Shown here: positions 1 through 11,883 of the stretch, piece by piece
Layout: the number at the start of each line of letters is the position of its first letter
Position numbering within the stretch: the first letter of the stretch is position 1
NCBI GenBank assembly: GCA_016188575.1
Contig: JACPHN010000253.1
Span: forward strand, 1 to 11,883
From: Candidatus Schekmanbacteria bacterium
GTDB taxonomy: Bacteria; CSSED10-310; JACPHN01
Length of the DNA stretch: 11,883 nucleotides
Reading direction: 5' to 3'
Program-made: the position numbers and the translations under genes
Notes under the pieces: generated by a model
Told to the model about the DNA's origin: nothing
Databases searched by the model: none
The model's input: the letters and a program-made list of their open reading frames with translations, nothing else

Positions 1-1453
1 CGTCGGCGTGCTGACACAGCGCGGATTCGGAGGCCCTGAACGCGTCGGCCGCCTCAACCAACACGGGACGGAGCTCCACGAGCGGCGCCGCAACCCCATC
101 GAGCCGCTCACGCACCTGGTCTCCTGCCCCGGCAACCCCGCCGGCGGCTTCCTTGACCTCGATCAGGATGCTACCCAGCGCAATCACGGTGTCGCGAAGG
201 CTGTGCGACACCTGGCCGAGCTCGGCCGCCGCCCCGTTCACGGTGCTGCCGGCGGTGTCCATCGCCCGCCCGACGCCCTGCGAAACCTCCGACATGCGCG
301 CCTGGTAATCGCTCGGGAGGCCACGGAGCGTGACGACGATCTCGCCGAGCGCGTGCTTCAGACCGGCGACCTCCGCATCCGCCTGAGCGAACACGGCGTC
401 GCTGATCTGCCGGCCGGCGCCTTCCCTGAGCCGCTTCATCTCCTCGACGAGCGTGGCAAAATGCGGGGCCATCATCCTGAGCAGCGGTTCGCTCGTGCTC
501 GAGCCGATTTTCGTTGGCAGCGACTCGGCGAGCTGCTGCAGCGTGGCTCCGAGCTCTTCGACCTTCCGGCGGACGTCTTCGGCCAGCGCGGACACGCGCT
601 GCTCCAGCTTTTCCGCGCGCGCCTCCGCGCGTTTGCTTTCGCTGCCGGCGAGCTCGCCGACGAGGGAAATCAGGTGCAGGTGCGCGTGTCGTTCGGTGAG
701 CAGCGGAAAGCGGCTATCCAGCATTCGCGCCCAGGCCGCCAGACGCTCGCCGCGCCGCGCTTCCGCGCTCCGCAGGCGGAGCGCCCACAGCATCGCGAAC
801 AGGATTCCTGCGAGCGACTTGGCGAACGCCAGGCGTGCACCGCCAAGCAGATCCGTCATGCCTTCCTGCATCCCCTCGATGGTCCCGGCGTCGTCGCTCT
901 GGGGATCACCCGACGCCGGTGCCGGCACCCCGGCGGCGACAATCGCCGAGGAGCCCGCGACGTGCTCGGCCCCGGTGAGCTTCGGCACGGCCTGCATCAG
1001 CCCGATGGTCAGGCCCAGAAACGTCCCCATCAACCCCAGCGAAATCAGCACCGTCTGGCCCGTGCCGAGCAGCTCCGGCAGCGCCAGATCGGCAGCGCCG
1101 CGCCGACCCGTGGCCAGCGCTTCGGCAGCCGACGTGATGCGCCAGGTGCGGCCACCGAGCTCGACGGGCGAGGCGGAGACCGCGTCGGCGACGTGGCTCA
1201 GCTCCTGAGGTACGCCTCCGGCTGAGTCGGGCTCGCGCTCGAGCCAGTCACGACCGGCATTCCACCAACGGCGAAGCGCCCACCAGTAGAGAAACCAGGC
1301 GACGGTCACCACGCTGATCATGATCGCGGTCAGCGGGTCGCGGTGCGCGCCGGGCAAAGCAAACCTCACGACCCAGTAGACCGCGCCGGCACAGGCAAGT
1401 AACTCCAGCACGCCGAGCCAGCTTTCCCCTGCCCACTTCAAGAACCTCAGCAT
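1..1453 (-). CDS. MotA/TolQ/ExbB-type proton-channel protein, ZorA-like (partial, 3' end off window)
   Basis: The frame is open from ATG at 1453 to the window edge (484 codons, no stop). Predicted membrane segments lie near residues 13-33, 41-60, 132-155 and 207-226. Segment 3 carries GTFLGLTIGL (143-152) and segment 4 follows LGGARLAFAKSLAG (203-216), the two signatures of the MotA/TolQ/ExbB fold; T144 and S213 are candidate ion-path residues. From about 228 to the edge the protein is charged, helical and Met-poor, with Glu/Lys/Arg/Ala heptad-like stretches, so a long cytoplasmic coiled-coil tail is likely. Known family: proton- or sodium-driven stators, including ZorA of the Zorya anti-phage system, which has such a tail. 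ZorA is an inference, because its partner ZorB would lie outside the window. The ATG was chosen because copies B and C conserve MLRF at the same point; a GGGGG-type ribosome site is weak. A sigma70-like promoter lies about 70 bp upstream. Confidence 0.72.
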   Translation of the reverse strand, partial: MLRFLKWAGESWLGVLELLACAGAVYWVVRFALPGAHRDPLTAIMISVVTVAWFLYWWALRRWWNAGRDWLEREPDSAGGVPQELSHVADAVSASPVELGGRTWRITSAAEALATGRRGAADLALPELLGTGQTVLISLGLMGTFLGLTIGLMQAVPKLTGAEHVAGSSAIVAAGVPAPASGDPQSDDAGTIEGMQEGMTDLLGGARLAFAKSLAGILFAMLWALRLRSAEARRGERLAAWARMLDSRFPLLTERHAHLHLISLVGELAGSESKRAEARAEKLEQRVSALAEDVRRKVEELGATLQQLAESLPTKIGSSTSEPLLRMMAPHFATLVEEMKRLREGAGRQISDAVFAQADAEVAGLKHALGEIVVTLRGLPSDYQARMSEVSQGVGRAMDTAGSTVNGAAAELGQVSHSLRDTVIALGSILIEVKEAAGGVAGAGDQVRERLDGVAAPLVELRPVLVEAADAFRASESALCQHAD

Positions 1454-1518
1454 CCCCCGCTCACCGACATCCAACCATGTTTGTTTCTCGTGTGCTCGTC
1501 CCCTGTTGACCGAGTCCA

Positions 1519-1546
1519 ATAGTACATGATTCGACTCCGGTGTCAA
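1519..1546 (-). promoter_or_regulatory. sigma70-like promoter of copy A (TTGACA-16-TACTAT)
   Basis: On the minus strand a consensus -35 box TTGACA (1546-1541) is followed by a 16-bp spacer and TACTAT (1524-1519), 65-95 bp before the ATG at 1453. The same arrangement is kept in copies B and C. In copy C the -10 box is degraded to TATTGA. The match is by eye and no transcription start is known. Confidence 0.6.
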
Positions 1547-1547
1547 G

Positions 1548-1573
1548 ATGCAAGCATTTGAAGCCATGCAAGC
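1548..1573 (-). promoter_or_regulatory. paired direct repeat GCTTGCAT upstream of the -35 box
   Basis: Two copies of GCTTGCAT lie 18 bp apart (1573-1566 and 1555-1548), directly upstream of the -35 box. The spacing is just under two helical turns. The pair is present in all three promoter copies; in copy B the outermost base of the distal half-site is changed. This suggests an activator binding site, but the regulator is unknown. Homology between the three copies stops at the outer edge of this repeat. Confidence 0.45.
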
Positions 1574-1615
1574 CTGAATTCACCGCCCATACGATTGCCA
1601 GCGGCGAGCCCCACT

Positions 1616-1645
1616 TCACCTCCCCCCACTTGCGGGCGGAGGTGA
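1616..1645. other. hairpin in the A-B spacer
   Basis: TCACCTCC (1616-1623) pairs with GGAGGTGA (1638-1645) around a 14-base loop that has some further C/G pairing. No T-tract follows on either strand, so it is not a standard intrinsic terminator. The rest of 1575-1705 shows no recognisable gene. Confidence 0.3.
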
Positions 1646-1705
1646 GGCGGAGGGTCCTCGCGATGCGCTTTCCGCGCAGCTTGCAGCCTGACGGGCGGGG
1701 GATTC

Positions 1706-1831
1706 ATGGACCGTTCACGAGTTGCGAAATTGCCCGCTACGCGCGGCATGGACCGTTCACGAGTTGCCAAGTTGCCCGCGACGCGCGGTATGGACCGTTC
1801 ACGAGTTGCGAAATCGCCCGCGCCGAGCGCG
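1706..1831. repeat. 42-bp tandem repeat, three units
   Basis: Three contiguous 42-bp units start at 1706, 1748 and 1790. Each begins ATGGACCGTTCACGAGTTGC; units 1 and 2 are nearly identical and unit 3 diverges in its last third. The period is a multiple of 3, so the array is open in several frames (MDRSRVAK... on the plus strand), but no start signal or family supports a gene. The array abuts the broken end of copy B at about 1829. Confidence 0.9.
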
Positions 1832-2018
1832 CCGGCAACCGCAAGAGACTCCAATACGCCGAGCCAGCTTTCCCCTGCCCACTTCGAGAACCTCAGCATC
1901 CCGCGCTCACCGACGTCCAACGATGTTTGTTTCTCGTGTGCTCGTCCCCTGTGGACTGAGCCCAATAGTACATGATTCGACCCCGGCGTCAAGATGCAAG
2001 CAATTGAAGCCATGCAAG
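1829..2018 (-). pseudogene. copy B: promoter plus first ~23 codons of the ZorA-like gene
   Basis: This 190-bp segment aligns without gaps to 1383-1572 of the main gene. It contains the upstream repeats, the promoter and the coding start (ATG at 1899, MLRFSKWAGESWLGVLES...). Similarity stops inside the first membrane segment, where the sequence runs into the 42-bp tandem array. The frame continues as low-complexity repeat translation to a stop at 1543, so any product would be nonfunctional. Substitutions relative to copy A are scattered, so the duplication is not recent. Confidence 0.85.
1965..1992 (-). promoter_or_regulatory. promoter of copy B (TTGACG-16-TACTAT)
   Basis: The -35 box TTGACG (1992-1987), a 16-bp spacer and TACTAT (1970-1965) match copy A except for one base of the -35 box. 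If active, it would read leftward through the tandem repeat and towards copy A. Confidence 0.5.
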
Positions 2019-2090
2019 TGGACGCGATCAGGTTGGCGAACCGCGAGGGCGTTTGTGGAGCTTCGCATACTGCGTTCTCCAAAATCCAAG

Positions 2091-3557
2091 CTAAAGGTCG
2101 CTCGTAAGGTCGTGGAGATCCTGCGCTCGATAGCCAGCCTTTGTGATGGCCTGACGCTGGTCTGCCGACAAGATCGGGGCGATGGCCACCCGTTCGATTT
2201 TCCAACCGGCCAATTCGGGGTGCCGCAGGAGGAGCCGGTCGGCGTGTGCGTTGAACCGCGACAGGTCAGCGACGAGCTTGTCAGCAGAGCGCTTGCACGA
2301 ACCGATGCGGAGCCGGCGGCTGTGCGCATCCTGAGCCACGAGGTCGACCTCGGCGCCCGTCCGATCCCACCAGCTTGCAACCGGCGCCGTAAGCGGGAAA
2401 TCGCCCTTCCCCAGGCGGCTCCGTTCCTGGTAAAGCCACGCTGCCAGGCGTTCCAGCACCCCACCCTCCACTGCAGCCAGGCGCTCGTCGGCGATAGACA
2501 CGAGGTCTGCGACGGGCCGTATACCCACCAGTGCGAGCGGGTCAGCCAGGGCGCCGAGCCAGGACTGAAGGAAATTGTCGGAGATGCCGTAGCGCCCCTG
2601 GCGGCTTCCCGGAGCAGCAAAGGCGGCACGGCGACGTTCGATGAGGCCGAAGCGCTCCTCCAAGGCGCGAAGATAAAAGCCGGGTTGCCCATCGCCGTAT
2701 CCCTTTACCTGGTTGGCATGAGCGACGATGTCGGCATGGCTGCACCCGGGGTGCTCGGCGATGTAGCGAAGAAACAGGTCGTAACGACCGCGCAGCTCCT
2801 CGAGCAGCCAAGTGTGGCCTTCTTCGCGCAGCGGTGCCGGCCCGTCGAAGAAAAGCGCGCGCAGTACTTCGGAACGATCCGAGGGCAAGATCCCGAGCTC
2901 CCAGGCGTCTTGCCAGTACTTCGGGACGCCCTGGAACAACCCCCACAGAAACAAGAGCCGAGAGGGTTCACGGTCAGCGTGCTGGTCGCAGATCTGGAGA
3001 ATCGCTTGGGCGTCGAGATGGCCAAGCGTGAAGCCGCCGCTGAGCCGGCCAAACAATGGGGCGCGGCGATCTTCAAGCAGCGCCATCATCTCCGTATGGA
3101 GAGAGCCCAGTAGAACAATGCCACCGCGGGCAGCTCGTTCGCCCAGACGGAAGCGGTCCACCTCGAACTGGAGCATCGAGTTGAAGGGGAAAAGGGATTT
3201 CTTGGAGAAGTACTGGAACTCGTCCAGGACGACGATCCAACCGTCGGCAGCGAGGTCAGCAAGGCGGGCCGCGAGGGTTTGCAGGTCGGTAGGCAGCAGT
3301 GCCTCGGGGACGCCACTCAGGGCAAGGTGCCGGCGTGCAGTAGCGACGACCCCAGCGGGTTCGCCATCGTCGACCTGGAGGAAAGCGACGCGTTCGCGTT
3401 GGGCAACGCGCAAAGCCTGGCGAACGAGCGCTGTCTTGCCGATGCGCCGGCGGCCGGTAACCCGCACGAAGAACCACCGATTGCGTTGTAGCAGGTCGGC
3501 AAAGGCGCGCACTTCTGCTTCGCGCCCGTAGAAGGTCCAACCGGAAAGCGCGTTCAC
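2091..3557 (-). CDS. archaeal-type P-loop ATPase with DUF234-like C-terminal domain
   Basis: This 488-residue protein starts at GTG (3557) and stops at TAG (2091). It begins with FYGREAEV, followed by Walker A TGRRRIGKT (34-42) and Walker B IVVLDEFQYF (108-117). GSLHTEMM (151-158) occupies a sensor-like position. A winged-helix-like region follows at about 255-310. The C-terminal part has GAEVDLVA (401-408) and RLRIGSCKRS (415-424), the layout of the PD-(D/E)XK-like DUF234 domain, but the usual Glu of the ExK pair is Ser420. The family (ATPase_2, PF01637, with PF03008) is widespread in archaea and mobile bacterial regions and its role is poorly defined. No Shine-Dalgarno motif separates the GTG from the upstream palindrome. 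The gene stands alone between direct-repeat copies B and C, with no operon partner. Confidence 0.88.
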   Translation of the reverse strand: MNALSGWTFYGREAEVRAFADLLQRNRWFFVRVTGRRRIGKTALVRQALRVAQRERVAFLQVDDGEPAGVVATARRHLALSGVPEALLPTDLQTLAARLADLAADGWIVVLDEFQYFSKKSLFPFNSMLQFEVDRFRLGERAARGGIVLLGSLHTEMMALLEDRRAPLFGRLSGGFTLGHLDAQAILQICDQHADREPSRLLFLWGLFQGVPKYWQDAWELGILPSDRSEVLRALFFDGPAPLREEGHTWLLEELRGRYDLFLRYIAEHPGCSHADIVAHANQVKGYGDGQPGFYLRALEERFGLIERRRAAFAAPGSRQGRYGISDNFLQSWLGALADPLALVGIRPVADLVSIADERLAAVEGGVLERLAAWLYQERSRLGKGDFPLTAPVASWWDRTGAEVDLVAQDAHSRRLRIGSCKRSADKLVADLSRFNAHADRLLLRHPELAGWKIERVAIAPILSADQRQAITKAGYRAQDLHDLTSDL

Positions 3558-3570
3558 GGGGCGTTTCGGG

Positions 3571-3594
3571 GTAAGGTAGAAATTTCTACCTTAC
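3571..3594. promoter_or_regulatory. perfect 24-bp palindrome before the ATPase gene
   Basis: The 12-base arm GTAAGGTAGAAA is followed immediately by its exact reverse complement, giving a 24-bp palindrome with no spacer. It ends 13 bp before the GTG of the ATPase and replaces the expected ribosome-site region. Likely roles are an operator for a dimeric regulator (possibly autoregulation), or a recognition site for the ATPase/nuclease-fold protein itself. In RNA it could form a hairpin next to the start codon. Confidence 0.85.
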
Positions 3595-3691
3595 GCCGCG
3601 ACCAGCTCGTTGCATCGTCACCCAGCTTCCGTTGCACCATCCGGCAGCGCCCAGTCCAGACCCCAAAGCCTCGCTGCGCCTGCCCCGGGCT

Positions 3692-3922
3692 GGCCTTGAT
3701 CCTCGTTTCGGCCAGGCGATGAAGGCGTGTAGCCATGACGGAGCTGACGAGAGCACGGTTCGGCTTCCGTAACGAACTTCCAATCCGGGGGGTCCCCCGA
3801 AAGTGTCGAACCGTGCCTGCTTAATATCCCTGCTCATCGGTTCCTGCAAGCGCGTCGCCCCGCTGGGACGGCATCACCAGAAGCGATTCTTGACCCACTT
3901 GGCCGAAACGAGGATCAAGGCC
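3692..3922. repeat. 231-bp element bounded by perfect 23-bp inverted repeats
   Basis: The sequence starting TGGCCGAAACGAGGATCAAG occurs at 3900-3922 and, inverted, at 3714-3692, identical over 23 bases. Between the arms there is no supported gene. A second inverted repeat (3753-3816) is nested inside, so the segment is palindromic at two scales. No transposase and no clear target duplication are visible. It may be a MITE-like or REP-like non-autonomous element, or the remains of a larger one. It fills the space between the ATPase palindrome and copy C. Confidence 0.7.
3753..3816. repeat. nested hairpin inside the inverted-repeat element
   Basis: GCACGGTTCG (3753-3762) is matched by CGAACCGTGC (3807-3816). 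Inside lies a G/C palindrome, CGGGGGGTCCCCCG (near 3786-3799). The single strand could fold into a long imperfect hairpin. No T-tract follows, which argues against a simple terminator. Confidence 0.6.
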
Positions 3923-4264
3923 GGTGTGCGCGGCCGCAGCCGAGGTGATGCGCCAGGTGCGGCCGCCGAGCTCGACAGTCGAGGCGGAGACCGCGTCGGC
4001 GACGTGGGTCAGTTCCTGAGGAACTCCTCTGGTCGGGTCGGGCTCGCGCTCGAGCCAGTCTCGACCCGCCTTCCACCAGCGGCGAAGCTTCCACCAGTAG
4101 AGAAACCAGGCGCCGGTCACCAAGCTGATCATGATCGCGGTCAGCGGGTCGCGGTGCGCGCCGGGCACCAAGAACCACATGATCCAACAGACCGCGCCGG
4201 CAGAGGCAAGAAACTCCAGCCCACCGAGCCAGCTTTCCCGTGCCCACTTCGAGAACCTCAGCAT
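3821..4264 (-). pseudogene. copy C: truncated N-terminal part of the ZorA-like gene
   Basis: From ATG 4264 this copy encodes MLRFSKWARESWLGGLEF... and keeps both N-terminal membrane segments and the GGRTWRITSAA motif. It is a gapless homologue of A over 3936-4384 versus 1125-1573 (449 bp, promoter included). Similarity ends at about codon 110, before the segments that form the ion channel. The frame then runs through unrelated sequence to a stop at 3821 (147 codons). A stable two-helix protein could be made but would lack the MotA/ExbB core. The -10 box is weaker than in A, so expression is doubtful. An upstream ATG at 4378 lies before the promoter and is not a credible start. Confidence 0.85.
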
Positions 4265-4329
4265 CCCGCGCTCACCGATGTCCAACCATGCCTGTTTGTG
4301 GTGTGCTCGTCCCACGTGGATAGACTCCA

Positions 4330-4357
4330 TCAATACATGGTTCGACGCCGGCGTCAA
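4330..4357 (-). promoter_or_regulatory. decayed promoter of copy C (TTGACG-16-TATTGA)
   Basis: This sits in the same position as the promoters of copies A and B: -35 TTGACG at 4357-4352 and a 16-bp spacer. The -10 element has changed to TATTGA and lost its final T. The paired upstream repeat (4384-4377 and 4366-4359) is intact. Confidence 0.4.
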
Positions 4358-4384
4358 GATGCAAGCATTTGAAGCCATGCAAGC

Positions 4385-4885
4385 GAATTTGCTTGCGCCT
4401 GGGCGCCCCTACCGTCCAGCCCGCATTTCCACTAGTTGCTTGCCGAACCACCAGACCGGTATTATCTTGTGCGTGCACGAGGGCGGAACGCTACGATCAC
4501 AATGGGCGGATCAGGTCTCATATCGGCGTTGGACAGGCGCCCTGGATGCGCGTCGATCTGCTATCGCGTTCCGGAGAAATACGCACGGCGCGGTGCGCTT
4601 CGGCCAGAGGCGAGTTTGGCGCGGGAGATTGGAGCGCGGGCGTTGCGTTGGCGTGAATCTTGCTTGGGCGACTGCATGCACAAGAACCGAGCACAGCGAG
4701 GAACAGGACAGCAACCGTCGTCGGCCGATCGTGGCACGTGCCATCGGCGCGGGGCTTTCGTGCAGGCGCAGCCGGAAGACCATTCAGGCCATGAAATCGC
4801 CTCGGACCTTATTGTTTTTACGCCGGCCTGGCAAGCTCCCGGCTCGCCAACGCCGCACCCATAACCCAACTGGGAGATCTGCCGC
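4385..4885. other. about 500 bp without a recognisable gene
   Basis: Several short frames are open here, but none has a recognisable motif, a convincing ribosome site or a codon pattern that stands out. The only clear structure is the 12-bp palindrome TGGCACGTGCCA (4732-4743), partly extended by CCGA/TCGG flanks, which could be an operator. Regulatory DNA for the gene starting at 4886 presumably lies here, but no good promoter is seen by eye. Confidence 0.5.
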
Positions 4886-5865: not shown

Positions 5866-7255
5866 AGACAGAAAGCGCGCATGCCAGACCTGCGCCAGCC
5901 GGCCCGGCCATGGTCGGTACATGATTCTCCCCCCGATAGGCTGCCCAGATGTTAATTTGCCCGTAGCCGGTGCGGAAGTCATAGCCGATACCGGTCGAGG
6001 TGATGTCCGCGGCGCTGTAGCTGAGGATGTCCTGGAGATCGCTCGGGCGCGCTAGCTGATAATGCTCCTGCAGGAGCGCCGCCGCGCCCGCAACCACCGC
6101 CGCGCTCGCCCAGGAGCCGCACTGATGGCCTGGAGCGGTGTAGGTCGATTGGCAGTCGGTCGCCGACACGTGCGGCGTGATTCGTTCGATCGGGTCCGAC
6201 ATCAAGACGCGGGCGGGACCCTCCGCGCTGGTCTCCCGCACACCAAATAACTGCCCACGCCCCGCCGGATGAGGTGTGGTCACCGTGCGATCGAGCGCCG
6301 CGACGGCGAGCACGCCCGGAATCGCGGCGATACCGCCGATCGTATTCGCCGTGCGCCCCGCACTGATGAGCGTTGGGTAACCGTTCTCAGCGTCGTCGCT
6401 AACTTCACACGGCGCCAAGACGAGCCCGAAGTCGCGCACCTCCGCCGCAGGGTCTTTCCATACGGAGAAATGGTATGTTCCGGCGGGAGCGCTCGATACA
6501 CCGGCCCAAGTACGTGGACCGCCATTGCAACAATCATTGGCGGACAGGACATTCATATCCTTGTCAAGTAAATACAAACCGTAGTTTTGGTAATCATAAG
6601 ATTCATAGTTGTCAGTCCAGTTGATTGACGCTCCGACATCACATGTTTCCGTTGTCTCTACCGTCCACACCGTGTTTCCACTACCGAAGTCGTGAAGGTC
6701 GTTTCCAGCATTTTTGAAAGTCCCTAAATAGTATGAAAGACGATGACCTCCTGCTGATGTGATGACCAAACTTCCTTGAGAGATGATTTGACTAATGGTA
6801 TTTGCATATTCTGTATCATCATCGAGCCAAACATTTTGTTCAAAATTGTCCGTAAATACTGCAATTTTAGCGTTTCCGTCCCAACTACCAGGGAGCATGG
6901 AGTCTACATCTTTCACATTTATCATATCGTAAATCTGTATAGCAGCTCCCGGAGCAATGTCGTGAATGATCTCGATGACCCGAGTCCCGATATTTCCCTG
7001 CAGAACTGGGGCGCCGTACATGAATGTAACTTCAGGCAAATCTCCTGATGCCTGCGCCGCCTCGTAGTTGTAATAGAGGTTTGCAAACACCGCCACCGTG
7101 ACCCCGCTCCCCGTCAACCCCGTCTGGGCGCGGAAGTCGGCGAAGCCGAGCTCGCTATCGGCCTCGGCGGTCACCTGCCCGACGGCGAACGCGGCCGACC
7201 CCGCCCCCAGAAACGCGACCACCATTATCCCCACGATCACCGCCGCGCGTGCCAT
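5825..7255 (-). CDS. exported subtilisin-fold (S8) pseudopeptidase with C-terminal membrane anchor
   Basis: This is a 476-residue protein from ATG 7255. A signal segment (residues 6-24) ends SAAFA. S8 landmarks follow in order: GSGVTVAVFANLYYN (49-63), GNIGTRVIEIIHDIAPGA (87-104), LVITSAGGHR (163-172), a PPC-like insert with a YGLYLLD strand (about 195-285), QCGSWASAAVVAGAAALL (378-395) and the late GYGQINIWAAY (430-440). At the expected catalytic positions the Asp, His, oxyanion Asn and Ser are replaced by Ala/Asn, Ile, Gly and Trp, so proteolysis is unlikely; a binding or sensing role is inferred. The tail has VPTM (446-449), a short hydrophobic helix and WRRAR, resembling IPTL-CTERM-type sorting signals. 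Its start overlaps the kinase gene by 19 bp. Upstream ATGs at 7339 and 7273 are less likely, since the signal peptide follows directly from 7255. Confidence 0.82.
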   Translation of the reverse strand: MARAAVIVGIMVVAFLGAGSAAFAVGQVTAEADSELGFADFRAQTGLTGSGVTVAVFANLYYNYEAAQASGDLPEVTFMYGAPVLQGNIGTRVIEIIHDIAPGAAIQIYDMINVKDVDSMLPGSWDGNAKIAVFTDNFEQNVWLDDDTEYANTISQIISQGSLVITSAGGHRLSYYLGTFKNAGNDLHDFGSGNTVWTVETTETCDVGASINWTDNYESYDYQNYGLYLLDKDMNVLSANDCCNGGPRTWAGVSSAPAGTYHFSVWKDPAAEVRDFGLVLAPCEVSDDAENGYPTLISAGRTANTIGGIAAIPGVLAVAALDRTVTTPHPAGRGQLFGVRETSAEGPARVLMSDPIERITPHVSATDCQSTYTAPGHQCGSWASAAVVAGAAALLQEHYQLARPSDLQDILSYSAADITSTGIGYDFRTGYGQINIWAAYRGENHVPTMAGPAGAGLACALSVFIYWRRARPLPYP

Positions 7256-10179
7256 TCCAGCTCCCTCCGCCATTTTTTCTCCCAACTTTCCGCGAGCTCG
7301 AGCGGCAACCCGATCGCGCATTCGCCCACGAGCTTCCAAAACCTCTTTTCCAAATGTTTATGGTTATAACGGCCAATTAATAAGCATATCGTGTCGAGCT
7401 CAATGGGCGTCAAGTCCATATCGACGAGTCGTTTTAGACATTCCAATAAGGCGCTTTCATCGTCGTCAATGGCGGCGATCAAGGCAACCGCTTCAACTTT
7501 CCTCCGTGTCGTAATATGTGTATTCATTTGCGCCATGATGTAACGGGCTAATCTCTTATCCTCTTGCATTACGGCACAGCGCAATAGAAGCATTGACGTC
7601 GTAAGAGCCTCTTCGCTATTCGGATTGGTGGCAAGGGACATGGCATGGTCGAGCACCGCGCGCGCGCCATCCAGCTCGCGTCTGGCCAAATAGTCGCGGG
7701 CGCGCGTGCAGGCGAGAAAGATCTGGTCCAAAAGGTCGTCCCCGTCAAGCTCGGGAAGGCTCGCAACCTCGAGACCTGGCCCGAGATCGATGTAAAGATC
7801 ACATCTTGTCAATGCTATCGTGCTACTGACGACTGCGCTCACCTGGGCGATCAATTGTTCTGCCTGCTTGATCGTGCTGTACGCCGTCCCCATCATCCCG
7901 GCGAGTCGCGCAAGCTCGGCCTGCTGATTGGTGAGCGACACATACTGGCTCAGGTCCATTGCATGTTCCCGTGCCCGCGCCGCGTGCCGATAGGCCCGCC
8001 GCATCAGCCCGAGCTCGCCGGCGGAGACGAGCACTCGCGTCGCCAGCGGCAGGTAGAAGCGGTGCTCCCTGTTTGGCCAGCTCGCCAACGCATCCTCCCC
8101 TGCCGCCAGCGCCCCGGCGAAGTCCCCTTCCAGACGTTTTTGCTGCACCCGGGTGGTGATCGCATACAGTCGCAAGGCCGCCCGCGGCCGGTCCTCGCAA
8201 CGCCGCAGGGAGTCCTCCACGTATCCGTCCACTTGCCGTATCCTGTCGACTGCGCTCCCCGGGGTGCTATTGATCAGCACCGCGAGCAGGTTACAGCGCG
8301 TGGATTCCTCCAGCCCCTCCCACCGCACTTCCTGCAGCCGATCGAGCAACGCCTCGCCTCTCGGCAGGGCGTTGCCTCCCAGACCCAGCGTGGCGACCGC
8401 GTGGCAAGCGAGCGCATAGGCGTCCCCGCGGTCTCCGGTGGCTTCCGCGAGCGCGAGCGCCTGTTCCGCCGCGGCGCACCGCTCCTCGATCGGGAAGAGC
8501 CGCGTCGCGCCCCAGGCCGCCAGCGCTCTGGCCTGGAGCAACGGATCGCCCATCTCCGCCGCCAGCGCTACCGCCTCGTCGGCGACCACCCGCAGCCGCG
8601 CCACATCGATCTCGACGTCCGGGAGCCCGCGCCGTGCCGCCACCTCGAACGCCCGCAGCCGCACCCAGACACGCGCCCCACAGACGCTTGCCCCGCCAAG
8701 CTCCTGGAGCACCTCCAAGATCTCGATCACGTCGCGATGGGCGTCCTCGAGCACCAGCTCTTCCACCAGTGCGATCCCGTAGCGCGCCGTTTCCGCGGCG
8801 TCGCCCGCCGCGCGCAGCAGGCGAAACGCCCGCAGGCGGTCCTGCTCGCGCACGATCCGCGCCAGGCGCTCGACCTGGAGGTCCGCGGGCACCGGCGCCT
8901 GCACGCAGACGCTCGCTTTCCGGATCCGTTCCCCGTCGCGGAGGATCAGCAGCGTCCCCTGCTCGCCGCTGTCTAGCCCGGTGAGCGCCTGGTCGACCGC
9001 GGCCTGCTCCCACCCGAGCACCTCGGCGATTTCTTCGGCGCGCAACCAGACGCCGGCGACCGCGAGGGCGCCGAGCACGCGGCGCGGCTCATCCGCGAGC
9101 CCCGCCATCACCCGCGCTACCTCCGCCCGCATTCCGGCGAACGCCTTCCCGGCCGCGATTTCTTCGATCCGCCGCGTGGCGATCACCCAGGACAGGGTGG
9201 CGTGGGCAATCGCCGCACCGCTCTCCACGAGCCCGCGGATCAGCGCCACAACCAGCTTGGGCAGGCCACCGGTGGCCTCCCAAATCGCCGTGGCGGCCTC
9301 GTCGGCGTGGGCCAGCACCCGAAACAGGCGCTCGAGCAGCTCCCGGATCGCGGCGACATCAAGCGGTGCCAGGGCATGGCGCTCCGTGACCTGTTCCGAC
9401 GGCGCCGCTCCGACCAGGTGGACAGCGCCCGCCGCGGTGGCCGGCAACCCGTCGAGCCGCTCGGCAACCGCCATCCGCGCCGCTTCCTCCCCGTGATGGA
9501 TCGCGAGCCACGCTCTAATCTCTGCAAGGAACCGCATGCGGCCAATGCCGCCCGGGCCGTCCACCAGGACCACGCGCGGCCGCCCGTCCGCGGATGCGGC
9601 GCGGCCGAGCTCAACGAGATGCGCGCAACAGGCGTCCCGCGCCAGCGAGCGCTCGACGTAGGGCGGCCGGGCCAGGCGCAGCAGGATCTCCTCGCCGTCG
9701 GGATAGCGCGCCTCGGGATTCCAGTCGGCGCAGACCTCGGCCATCGACTTCGGGCGCGCGCCCGGATCGCGGTTGAGCATCTGGCGCACGAGCGCCCGCA
9801 GGTGCCCGGGGATCGCCATCGGCATCACTGCTGGCGCCTCCGCAAGGCGGCGGTCCAGGTCGGCGTCCGTCGTCACTGGGAATGGCGTCTCGCCGCTCAG
9901 CAACTCGTACGCGAGCCACCCGAACGAATAGATGTCCGCGCGCGGATCGACGACGGCGGGCCGCGACGGATCGCGCAGCGCCGGCGGCGATGGCCAGCCC
10001 GAAGTCCGCGACTTTCGCCACCGCTTGGCCGTCTCGCTCCGCGATGAGGATGTTACCCGGCTTGATGTCCAGGTGGGCGATCCCGAGCGCATCGTGGGCG
10101 TAGGCGAGACCTTTGGCGATCTGCCAGAGCAGCGCGAGCGCCTGGTCACGATCGAGAGCGCCGCGACCCTGCCGTGCAA
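7237..10179 (-). CDS. kinase 2 C-lobe + degenerate ATPase 2 + TPR-like helical region (3' part of the split kinase gene)
   Basis: The open frame runs from 10179 to TGA at 7237, but its first ~63 residues are out-of-frame translation of the kinase 2 N-lobe. Genuine homology begins near 9990 with PPALRDPSRPAVVDPRADIYSFGWLAYEL, the kinase C-lobe after the activation segment. Next comes an AAA/STAND-like domain with GPGGIGRMRF (208-217), a P-loop whose Lys and Ser/Thr are replaced, so ATP hydrolysis is doubtful. EATGGLPKLVVALI and a winged-helix-like part follow. From about residue 430 to the end there are repeated Ala/Leu/Glu-rich helix pairs typical of TPR or MalT-like C-termini. This appears to be one gene with the frame at 9611-11883, separated by a frameshift. 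The last ~100 codons are much more AT-rich than the rest. It ends WHARR, overlapping the next gene by 19 bp. Confidence 0.8.
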   Translation of the reverse strand: MHGRVAALSIVTRRSRCSGRSPKVSPTPTMRSGSPTWTSSRVTSSSRSETAKRWRKSRTSGWPSPPALRDPSRPAVVDPRADIYSFGWLAYELLSGETPFPVTTDADLDRRLAEAPAVMPMAIPGHLRALVRQMLNRDPGARPKSMAEVCADWNPEARYPDGEEILLRLARPPYVERSLARDACCAHLVELGRAASADGRPRVVLVDGPGGIGRMRFLAEIRAWLAIHHGEEAARMAVAERLDGLPATAAGAVHLVGAAPSEQVTERHALAPLDVAAIRELLERLFRVLAHADEAATAIWEATGGLPKLVVALIRGLVESGAAIAHATLSWVIATRRIEEIAAGKAFAGMRAEVARVMAGLADEPRRVLGALAVAGVWLRAEEIAEVLGWEQAAVDQALTGLDSGEQGTLLILRDGERIRKASVCVQAPVPADLQVERLARIVREQDRLRAFRLLRAAGDAAETARYGIALVEELVLEDAHRDVIEILEVLQELGGASVCGARVWVRLRAFEVAARRGLPDVEIDVARLRVVADEAVALAAEMGDPLLQARALAAWGATRLFPIEERCAAAEQALALAEATGDRGDAYALACHAVATLGLGGNALPRGEALLDRLQEVRWEGLEESTRCNLLAVLINSTPGSAVDRIRQVDGYVEDSLRRCEDRPRAALRLYAITTRVQQKRLEGDFAGALAAGEDALASWPNREHRFYLPLATRVLVSAGELGLMRRAYRHAARAREHAMDLSQYVSLTNQQAELARLAGMMGTAYSTIKQAEQLIAQVSAVVSSTIALTRCDLYIDLGPGLEVASLPELDGDDLLDQIFLACTRARDYLARRELDGARAVLDHAMSLATNPNSEEALTTSMLLLRCAVMQEDKRLARYIMAQMNTHITTRRKVEAVALIAAIDDDESALLECLKRLVDMDLTPIELDTICLLIGRYNHKHLEKRFWKLVGECAIGLPLELAESWEKKWRRELEWHARR
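7263..7268 (-). promoter_or_regulatory. ribosome binding site of the pseudo-subtilase gene
   Basis: GGAGGG lies 7 bases before ATG 7255, inside the last codons of the kinase gene. It decides the start and allows translational coupling to the upstream kinase frame. Confidence 0.7.
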
Positions 10180-11883
10180 TGCGGTCCCGCAAGCTATCCG
10201 GCAAATATTCCATCACCAGCCCGACGGCGCCGAGCTCCTGGTCGTGGACGACATCGAGCATGGGCGCGATGTGCGGGTGCACGAGCGCCGCGAGCGTCCG
10301 CATCTCCTCGCGGAACCGACCCGCCGCCCGCTCATCCGCCATGCGCGTCACCTTCACGGCGACTTCGGAATGATGAGTTGCGAATGATGAGTGAGGAATG
10401 GGAGACGGCGCCTGCAGCGTTGCCGGCAGATCTCCGCCCTCTGCTCTCGGCATTCCGCATTCCGCATTCATCACTCCGCATTCATCATTCATCATTCCCC
10501 GAAACACCATCCCCATGCCGCCCTGGCCAATGAAGGACAGCAGTCTACAGGAACCGATGTGGCCGCGGGCGAGAAGCTCGTCGGGGGAGAGGGAGCTTCG
10601 AGTTTCGGGTTGCGGGTTTCGGGTTTTGGGTTGCGCGTTCCGCTCGGGGTCTTCCTGCGTTCGCGCGGAGAGGTGAAAAGGGGGGCCAACAGGCGGTGTG
10701 CTCAGGGTCTCCAGGGTCACCTCGGAACCGGAAGCCGGGAGATCGGCGCACGGAGCCGACGACGGGCCGCCCGAGACTTCGAGCGCGAAACGCGAAACCT
10801 CAAACTGGGAACCGACCTCCCACGTCCCATCGTAACCCCGCCGCAGCCGGCCCGCCGCGACCTGTTCCCCGAGCCAGTCGATCAGCGTCCCCGGCAAGCG
10901 CGGTGCCGCCGACAGGAGCTCCGCCGCACCCGCCGCGAGCGGCCCGCCGAGCACGGCGCGGCTCAGCTCCGCCGCCAGCCCCGCTGCCAGCGCTTCGAGC
11001 CGTCGCACCGGCGCGCCCAGACCCACCAGCGCGTCTTCCGTGTCCGCGGTCACCAGTGCCACGCCCGCGAACCGCGCCAACAGCGCCGCGACGAAGGCGC
11101 GGGTGGCGTCCGACGCCGCGTCGAGCCGCTCGAGAATCAGCGCCGACGCGCTCTCCCAGGTCGGCGCCAACGCCCGCGCCACCGTCTCGGCCGCCCCGGT
11201 GTCGAGCGCCCCGATCCCTGCGGCCGCGAGCTCCGCGCCGGGATGTGTCCGCCGCACCCGCGCCACCAGCTCCTCGGCAACCGCGCCAGCCGCGATCTGG
11301 TCGAATCGCAGCCGCACCACCAGGAGTGACGCGCGCTCCCACGCCACGCGCGCCTCCGTTGCCAGGCGGTGCTTGCCGCTGCCCGCCGGGCCGACCAGGC
11401 CCAGGCGCGGCCCCGCGTTCCCCGGCCGACAAACAGCCCAGGCGGCCTTCGTGATCTCGGCCAGCTCATCCTCCCGCCCGACAAGCCGCGTCGCGGGCAA
11501 GTCCAGGTAGCTGATCGCCGCCGGCGCGAGCAAGCGATCCCGCTCCGCGCCCAGCTCCGCCCACGCCGCGAGCCGCGCGCCCAGCACCCCCGGAAACGGC
11601 CGCGCCTCCGGTGCCAGCGCGAAGCACTCGCGCAGCACCACTTCGAGCTCCGCGGGAAACGGCGCCACGATCTCGCTCGGCCAGCGCGCCGGCTGGGACT
11701 GCTCGGCGCGGCCGGAGGCGTCGAACGTGCGCACGGGAAACGCCGCCGCACCGCACCACAGCTCGTACAGGACGCAGCCGAGCGCGAAGATGTCGCTCCG
11801 CGGAACCACGTCGATCGCCCGGCGCGACTGCTCGACCGGCATCGCCCCCGGCGTCCCGAACATCTCGCTCTTGCCAGTCTGCC
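9611..11883 (-). CDS. tandem Ser/Thr kinase: kinase 1 C-lobe, ATPase 1, kinase 2 N-lobe (partial; frameshifted at its 3' end)
   Basis: The frame is open to the right edge; QTGKSE precedes the first internal ATG (11863), so the true start is outside. Numbering from 11863: FGTPGAMPVEQ (2-12) is the end of a kinase 1 activation segment and SDIFALGCVLYEL (23-35) its C-lobe. LVGREDEL (127-134) and GPAGSGKH (158-165) open ATPase 1. A repeat-filled linker leads to kinase 2: GQGGMGMVFRG glycine loop, EVAVK (Lys504), HLDIKPGN catalytic loop (Leu in place of Arg of HRD) and DFG (620-622). After DFGLAIA the frame is lost: translation continues as Arg/Ala-rich nonsense to a stop at 9611, while the kinase C-lobe continues in the frame ending at 7237. 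The role is cytoplasmic protein phosphorylation coupled to a signalling ATPase; the substrate is unknown. Confidence 0.82.
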   Translation of the reverse strand, partial: QTGKSEMFGTPGAMPVEQSRRAIDVVPRSDIFALGCVLYELWCGAAAFPVRTFDASGRAEQSQPARWPSEIVAPFPAELEVVLRECFALAPEARPFPGVLGARLAAWAELGAERDRLLAPAAISYLDLPATRLVGREDELAEITKAAWAVCRPGNAGPRLGLVGPAGSGKHRLATEARVAWERASLLVVRLRFDQIAAGAVAEELVARVRRTHPGAELAAAGIGALDTGAAETVARALAPTWESASALILERLDAASDATRAFVAALLARFAGVALVTADTEDALVGLGAPVRRLEALAAGLAAELSRAVLGGPLAAGAAELLSAAPRLPGTLIDWLGEQVAAGRLRRGYDGTWEVGSQFEVSRFALEVSGGPSSAPCADLPASGSEVTLETLSTPPVGPPFHLSARTQEDPERNAQPKTRNPQPETRSSLSPDELLARGHIGSCRLLSFIGQGGMGMVFRGMMNDECGVMNAECGMPRAEGGDLPATLQAPSPIPHSSFATHHSEVAVKVTRMADERAAGRFREEMRTLAALVHPHIAPMLDVVHDQELGAVGLVMEYLPDSLRDRIARQGRGALDRDQALALLWQIAKGLAYAHDALGIAHLDIKPGNILIAERDGQAVAKVADFGLAIAAGAARSVAARRRRSARGHLFVRVARVRVAERRDAIPSDDGRRPGPPPCGGASSDADGDPRAPAGARAPDAQPRSGRAPEVDGRGLRRLESRGALSRRRGDPAAPGPAALRRALAGAGRLLRASR
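10367..10498. repeat. 132-bp hairpin-type repeat element inside kinase 2
   Basis: The ends are GGAATGATGA (10367-10376) and its exact complement TCATCATTCC (10489-10498). The arms consist of short ATTC/ATC-type repeats (CATTCCGCATTCATCA...) in inverted orientation around a unique core of about 50 bp. The element is 132 bp, exactly 44 codons and codon-aligned, and encodes MMNDECGVMNAECG... to ...SFATHHS between the glycine loop and VAVK of kinase 2. Similar low-complexity translations are, to my knowledge, scattered in large bacterial genomes; this is recollection, not a search. No transposase gene is present. Confidence 0.75.
10597..10815. repeat. second repeat element with GGGTTTCGGG-type arms in the kinase linker
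   Basis: The left arm (10597-10641) repeats GGGTTTCGGGTT-like units. The right arm (about 10771-10815) holds GCGAAACGCGAAACCTCAAAC, of opposite polarity. The arms are imperfectly complementary and enclose a ~130-bp core. In the kinase frame they encode KTRNPQPETR and QFEVSRFALEVSG. The element fills the linker between ATPase 1 and kinase 2 and keeps the frame open. Exact ends are uncertain. Confidence 0.5.

What the first reader, a model, noticed from the sequence alone, without database searches (positions are those of the whole stretch)
1125..4384. Three same-orientation copies of one gene's promoter and 5' end, two of them truncated at different points
Segments 1125-1573, 1829-2018 and 3936-4384 align without gaps. 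All share the same outer edge, at the distal GCTTGCAT repeat, but stop at different places in the coding sequence (codon >484, ~23, ~110). A common upstream edge and variable downstream edge suggest repeated duplication from a fixed point, or repeated replacement of the gene body behind a kept promoter. The copies could recombine to delete the DNA between them, or swap N-termini.
Basis: seen in the sequence. Interest (0 to 1): 0.75.

Follow-up and report, generated by a model that had tools for sequence, protein, structure and literature searches.

The report
Broken partial copies of a zorA-like gene
Next to one zorA-like gene (a motor-type membrane protein of the kind used in phage defence) lie two older, incomplete copies of its start, left by local rearrangement beside dispersed repeat elements; the copies are real, but they look like genome debris rather than a working gene-switching system.

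Summary
Three same-strand copies of one promoter and 5' gene end lie at 1572->1117 and beyond, 2018->1825 (91% identical) and 4383->~3930 (87%). They align without gaps, and all similarity starts at the same base (CTTGCATGG). The gene is a divergent ZorA-like MotA/ExbB protein cut by the contig end. Between copies 3 and 2 sits an intact ATPase of candidate defence family PDC-S27.

New facts change the reading. (1) The upstream edge of copy 1 is exactly the end of a 136-bp inverted-repeat element (1573-1708) of a family with at least 40 copies in this genome. (2) The downstream edge of copy 2 runs into a 42-bp x3 tandem array that abuts this element. (3) The downstream edge of copy 3 lies about 10 bp from a 231-bp stretch bounded by a perfect 23-bp inverted repeat. 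(4) The edge motif occurs only at these three places in 9.2 Mb, so there is no genome-wide "same edge, other gene body" system.

Most likely these are decayed 5'-partial duplicates of one gene with breakpoints at repeat elements. A fixed breakpoint at the foot of the hairpin-forming element is a plausible but unproven cause of the common edge. Low to moderate interest.

The parts
2..1453 (-). Copy 1 coding part: zorA-like MotA/ExbB-type gene, >=484 codons, runs off the contig
   Evidence: ORF; NCBIfam ZorA_2 3e-8, below cutoff; PADLOC ZorA1 3e-14; 22% identity to a plasmid ZorA across the LGTFLGL motor segment
1454..1572 (-). Copy 1 leader: direct repeat GCTTGCAT-N10-GCTTGCAT (its first G is base 1573), promoter-like TTGACA-16-TACTAT (1546-1519), Shine-Dalgarno-like GGTGAG before ATG 1453
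1573..1708 (-). Dispersed ~136-140-bp inverted-repeat element (ends CCTGAATCCACCGCC / GGCGGTGGATTCAGG); its end is the upstream edge of copy 1
   Evidence: folds at -37.9 kcal/mol as DNA, z -3.7
1705..1830 (-). 42-bp x3 tandem repeat into which copy 2 runs
1825..2018 (-). Copy 2: leader plus ~23 codons, 91% to copy 1
2091..3557 (-). Intact ATPase, candidate defence family PDC-S27, between copies 3 and 2
   Evidence: PADLOC PDC-S27 4e-174 over the full length; AAA_16 1e-7
3692..3922 (.). 231-bp stretch bounded by a perfect 23-bp inverted repeat; its ~160-bp core recurs at two other places in the genome; lies ~10 bp after the end of copy 3
3930..4383 (-). Copy 3: leader plus ~110 codons, 87% to copy 1; promoter consensus lost

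Best explanation
Copy 1 is the working (or last working) gene: a zorA-like membrane motor gene with its own promoter. Copies 2 and 3 are older, non-functional partial duplicates of its promoter and 5' end, made by local rearrangement in a stretch full of dispersed repeat elements. Shown: one common upstream base, variable downstream ends, all in one 3-kb stretch, and three of the breakpoints at or within ~10 bp of repeat elements. Inferred: the common edge is fixed because rearrangements start or stop at the foot of the hairpin-forming element that abuts copy 1. A fork or repair polymerase copying the gene's 5' end towards the element stops there and continues elsewhere, giving pieces with one fixed and one variable end. 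No function is inferred for the partial copies. The confidence given is for non-functional partial duplicates; the hairpin-foot step alone is about 0.2 to 0.3.
For: The edge of copy 1 coincides to the base with the end of the 136-bp element, which folds strongly as single-stranded DNA. The flanks of copies 2 and 3 carry no trace of that element (anchored scores no better than random). The downstream ends of copies 2 and 3 adjoin repeats. The edge motif is unique to these three places. Copy 1 to copy 3 dN/dS is about 0.44 (0.107/0.244), near what one constrained and one free copy would give. In the shared 184 bp copy 1 has the fewest private changes (6, against 9 and 16). Copy 3 has lost the -10 consensus.
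Against: No indels or stops in copy 3 over ~450 bp at 13% divergence, fewer than expected of a long-dead copy; it may have been kept as a full gene for a while. The hairpin-foot step is inference from one coincidence. Private-change counts are unrooted and small. No relative shows an intermediate state.
Confidence: 0.6

Rival explanations
1. Decay of an ordinary tandem array. Three full-length paralogues arose by tandem duplication, so every unit begins at the same base; insertions and deletions later removed the 3' parts of two, and the dispersed element happened to insert at one unit border.
For: Gap-free, stop-free homology in copy 3 despite 13% divergence suggests it stayed coding for a time; tandem same-strand order.
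Against: Copies 1 and 2 should share the 3' end of the unit just upstream, and they do not. It needs the element to land exactly on the border, yet its other insertion sites show no shared flank. No 3' fragments of the gene were found in the genome, though the true 3' end lies beyond the contig.
Confidence: 0.3
2. A maintained recombination cassette system: the 5' copies are silent donors that swap promoter or N-terminus with the full gene, or recombine to delete the ATPase between them.
For: Direct repeats of 190-450 bp at 87-91% identity could recombine; differences between copies 1 and 3 are patchy (variance/mean 1.6, p 0.006), which gene conversion could cause, but so could uneven constraint.
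Against: No recombinase among the window's genes; divergence of 9-13% argues against frequent exchange; copy 3 has a weakened promoter; no other donors in the genome.
Confidence: 0.05
3. One-ended transposition: the dispersed element's machinery mobilised the DNA next to it, giving copies with one fixed end.
For: Fixed end exactly at the element's terminus.
Against: Copies are only local and in one orientation; no transposase was identified; whether other copies of the element have such neighbours was not examined.
Confidence: 0.05

Closest known systems
Truncated tandem paralogues / 5'-partial gene duplicates in repeat-rich bacterial regions
   Same: Same-strand partial copies, diverged, beside repeats
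   Different: All three share one upstream base, and one edge is exactly a dispersed-element end
Prokaryotic MITE / REP-like elements (review PMC10969869)
   Same: About 140 bp, terminal inverted repeats, strong fold, at least 40 copies
   Different: G+C-rich, no target-site duplication seen, no parent transposon identified
Zorya ZorA
   Same: MotA/ExbB motor segment, long coiled tail, next to a candidate defence ATPase
   Different: Scores below the curated family cutoff; ZorB and the other partners not seen

Membership tests
Zorya ZorA (NCBIfam NF033915, PADLOC ZorA) | Score above the curated family cutoff | tested here: not met
   33.2 bits against a cutoff of 100; the gene is cut by the contig end
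Zorya ZorA (NCBIfam NF033915, PADLOC ZorA) | MotA/ExbB motor transmembrane segment (GTFLGL, then AF..S..G) and long coiled tail | tested here: met
   Alignment with a plasmid ZorA, E 4e-12
Zorya ZorA (NCBIfam NF033915, PADLOC ZorA) | zorB next to zorA | not testable with these tools
   Contig ends inside the gene; one distant ZorB query gave no clear match in the genome
PDC-S27 candidate defence ATPase | Full-length profile match | tested here: met
   4e-174, residues 6-487 of 488
MITE | Under 500 bp, terminal inverted repeats, many copies | tested here: met
   Mostly 136-142 bp, paired ends in 20 genome copies and the window copy, at least 40 places
MITE | Flanking target-site duplication | tested here: inconclusive
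   None visible by eye in 21 flank pairs; the review says these fade with age
MITE | Mobilised by the transposase of a related full-length transposon | not tested
   No parent transposon was sought beyond the window
Decayed tandem paralogue array | Unit 3' ends between the copies, or an intact array in relatives | tested here: inconclusive
   None seen between the copies; no relatives hold the gene and the gene's true 3' end is off the contig

The most novel reading that the evidence does not exclude
The foot of a dispersed hairpin element acts as a fixed breakpoint from which the neighbouring gene start is copied repeatedly into nearby sites, giving pieces with one constant and one variable end.
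Probability: 0.2. Interest if true: 0.45.

Novelty: new member of a known kind. Interest (0 to 1): 0.25.

Why it matters
If the hairpin-foot reading holds, a family of dispersed elements in a large, poorly sampled genome would be a source of fixed-end partial duplications that could be surveyed across its many copies. As it stands, it is a tidy example of how repeat elements break up a defence-type gene neighbourhood.

Tried and rejected
Shared regulatory site or attachment site used genome-wide: rejected, motif only at three places. Remnants of the same element upstream of copies 2 and 3: none. The leader as coding sequence from the ATG at 1567: open in all three copies, but GC3 is far below that of the gene body, so promoter is preferred. 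Known RNA family: no match. Relatives of the gene in GTDB contigs: none. The leader pattern in viral contigs: none. ZorB and ZorC in the genome by distant queries: none clear, not conclusive. PDC-S27 in a Myxococcales bin (L030, 51% identity): no zorA-like gene was noticed among its listed reading frames (read by eye only).

Full report
The window is a complete 11,883-bp contig of a 9.2-Mb, 275-contig draft genome; only seven other genomes of its phylum are held here.

Observation. The three segments are real. Repeat search finds a 194-nt family at 1379-1572, 1825-2018 and 4190-4383 and a 300-nt pair at 1117-1416 and 3928-4227. Aligned in gene orientation from the shared base CTTGCATGG they need no gap; identity is at background just upstream in each case and falls to background after about 190 bases (copy 2) and 450 bases (copy 3). 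Nothing else in the genome matches them, and the 26-base edge motif with up to three mismatches occurs only at these three places.

What the gene is. Copy 1 is an open frame of at least 484 codons from the ATG at 1453. Its profile matches are to ZorA, the MotA/ExbB-type motor protein of Zorya phage defence, but below the curated cutoff and partly over the coiled tail. A plasmid ZorA aligns across the motor segment LGTFLGLTIGL and the following AF..S..G helix. It is a divergent ZorA-like protein; membership of Zorya is not established, since the contig ends before any zorB and distant ZorB and ZorC queries gave no clear match. The ATPase between copies 3 and 2 is a full-length match to the candidate defence family PDC-S27; for most such candidates experimental validation is pending (PMC12988326).

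The leader. The 120 bases before ATG 1453 are AT-richer than the gene, with GC3 of 55% against 84%, and hold TTGACA-16-TACTAT in copy 1 and a near match in copy 2; copy 3 has lost it.

The edges. The base before CTTGCATGG in copy 1 is the last base of a 136-bp element with inverted ends, related to at least 40 others in the genome, mostly about 140 bp long. It folds strongly as single-stranded DNA. The flanks of copies 2 and 3 hold no trace of it and no other dispersed repeat right at the edge. Copy 2 ends in a 42-bp x3 tandem array that adjoins the element. Copy 3 ends about 10 bp from a stretch bounded by a perfect 23-bp inverted repeat, whose core recurs at two other places.

Interpretation. 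Simple decay of a tandem array explains a common upstream border, but it predicts unit 3' ends between the copies, which are not seen, and it leaves the exact abutment of the element as a coincidence; the element's other insertion sites show no shared flank sequence. A fixed breakpoint at the foot of the hairpin explains one fixed and one variable end with a single cause, and hairpin-induced template switching is a recognised process (reviewed, mainly for eukaryotes, in PMC7999016). This remains inference. The substitution pattern (dN/dS about 0.44; fewest private changes in copy 1) fits one constrained gene and relaxed copies, whereas the lack of indels in copy 3 hints that it was maintained for some time. 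I therefore favour non-functional partial duplicates (0.6), with array decay as the main rival (0.3).

Verdict. Confirmed observation, partly supported interpretation, low to moderate interest.

Noticed in passing
1573-1708 and at least 40 places in the genome: Family of ~140-bp G+C-rich inverted-repeat elements (CCTGAATCCACCGCC...GGCGGTGGATTCAGG) without visible target-site duplication; parent transposon not identified.
   Followed up: partly
3699-3867; L009 and L010 near 1501-1669: A ~160-bp element (GCTTGCAGGAACGGATGAGCAGGG...CTGGCCGAAACGAGGAT) at three places; in L009 and L010 an ATG follows within about 25-65 bases, in the window the ATPase start is ~140 bases on. Could be a leader or small RNA element; no Rfam match.
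   Followed up: partly
3567-3598: Near-perfect palindrome GTAAGGTAGAAATTTCTACCTTAC just upstream of the PDC-S27 ATPase start; looks like an operator.
   Followed up: no
9611-10179: Protein kinase/AAA gene appears split by a frameshift: the kinase domain starts in one frame (9611-11881) and its C-terminal part continues in another (7237-10179).
   Followed up: no
10367-10640: Low-complexity repeats (GAATGATGAGT/CATTCATCATTCC and TTCGGGT) inside the kinase reading frame.
   Followed up: no
4419-4568; L036 1501-1650: A 150-bp stretch upstream of copy 3 recurs at 77% identity at one other place in the genome.
   Followed up: partly
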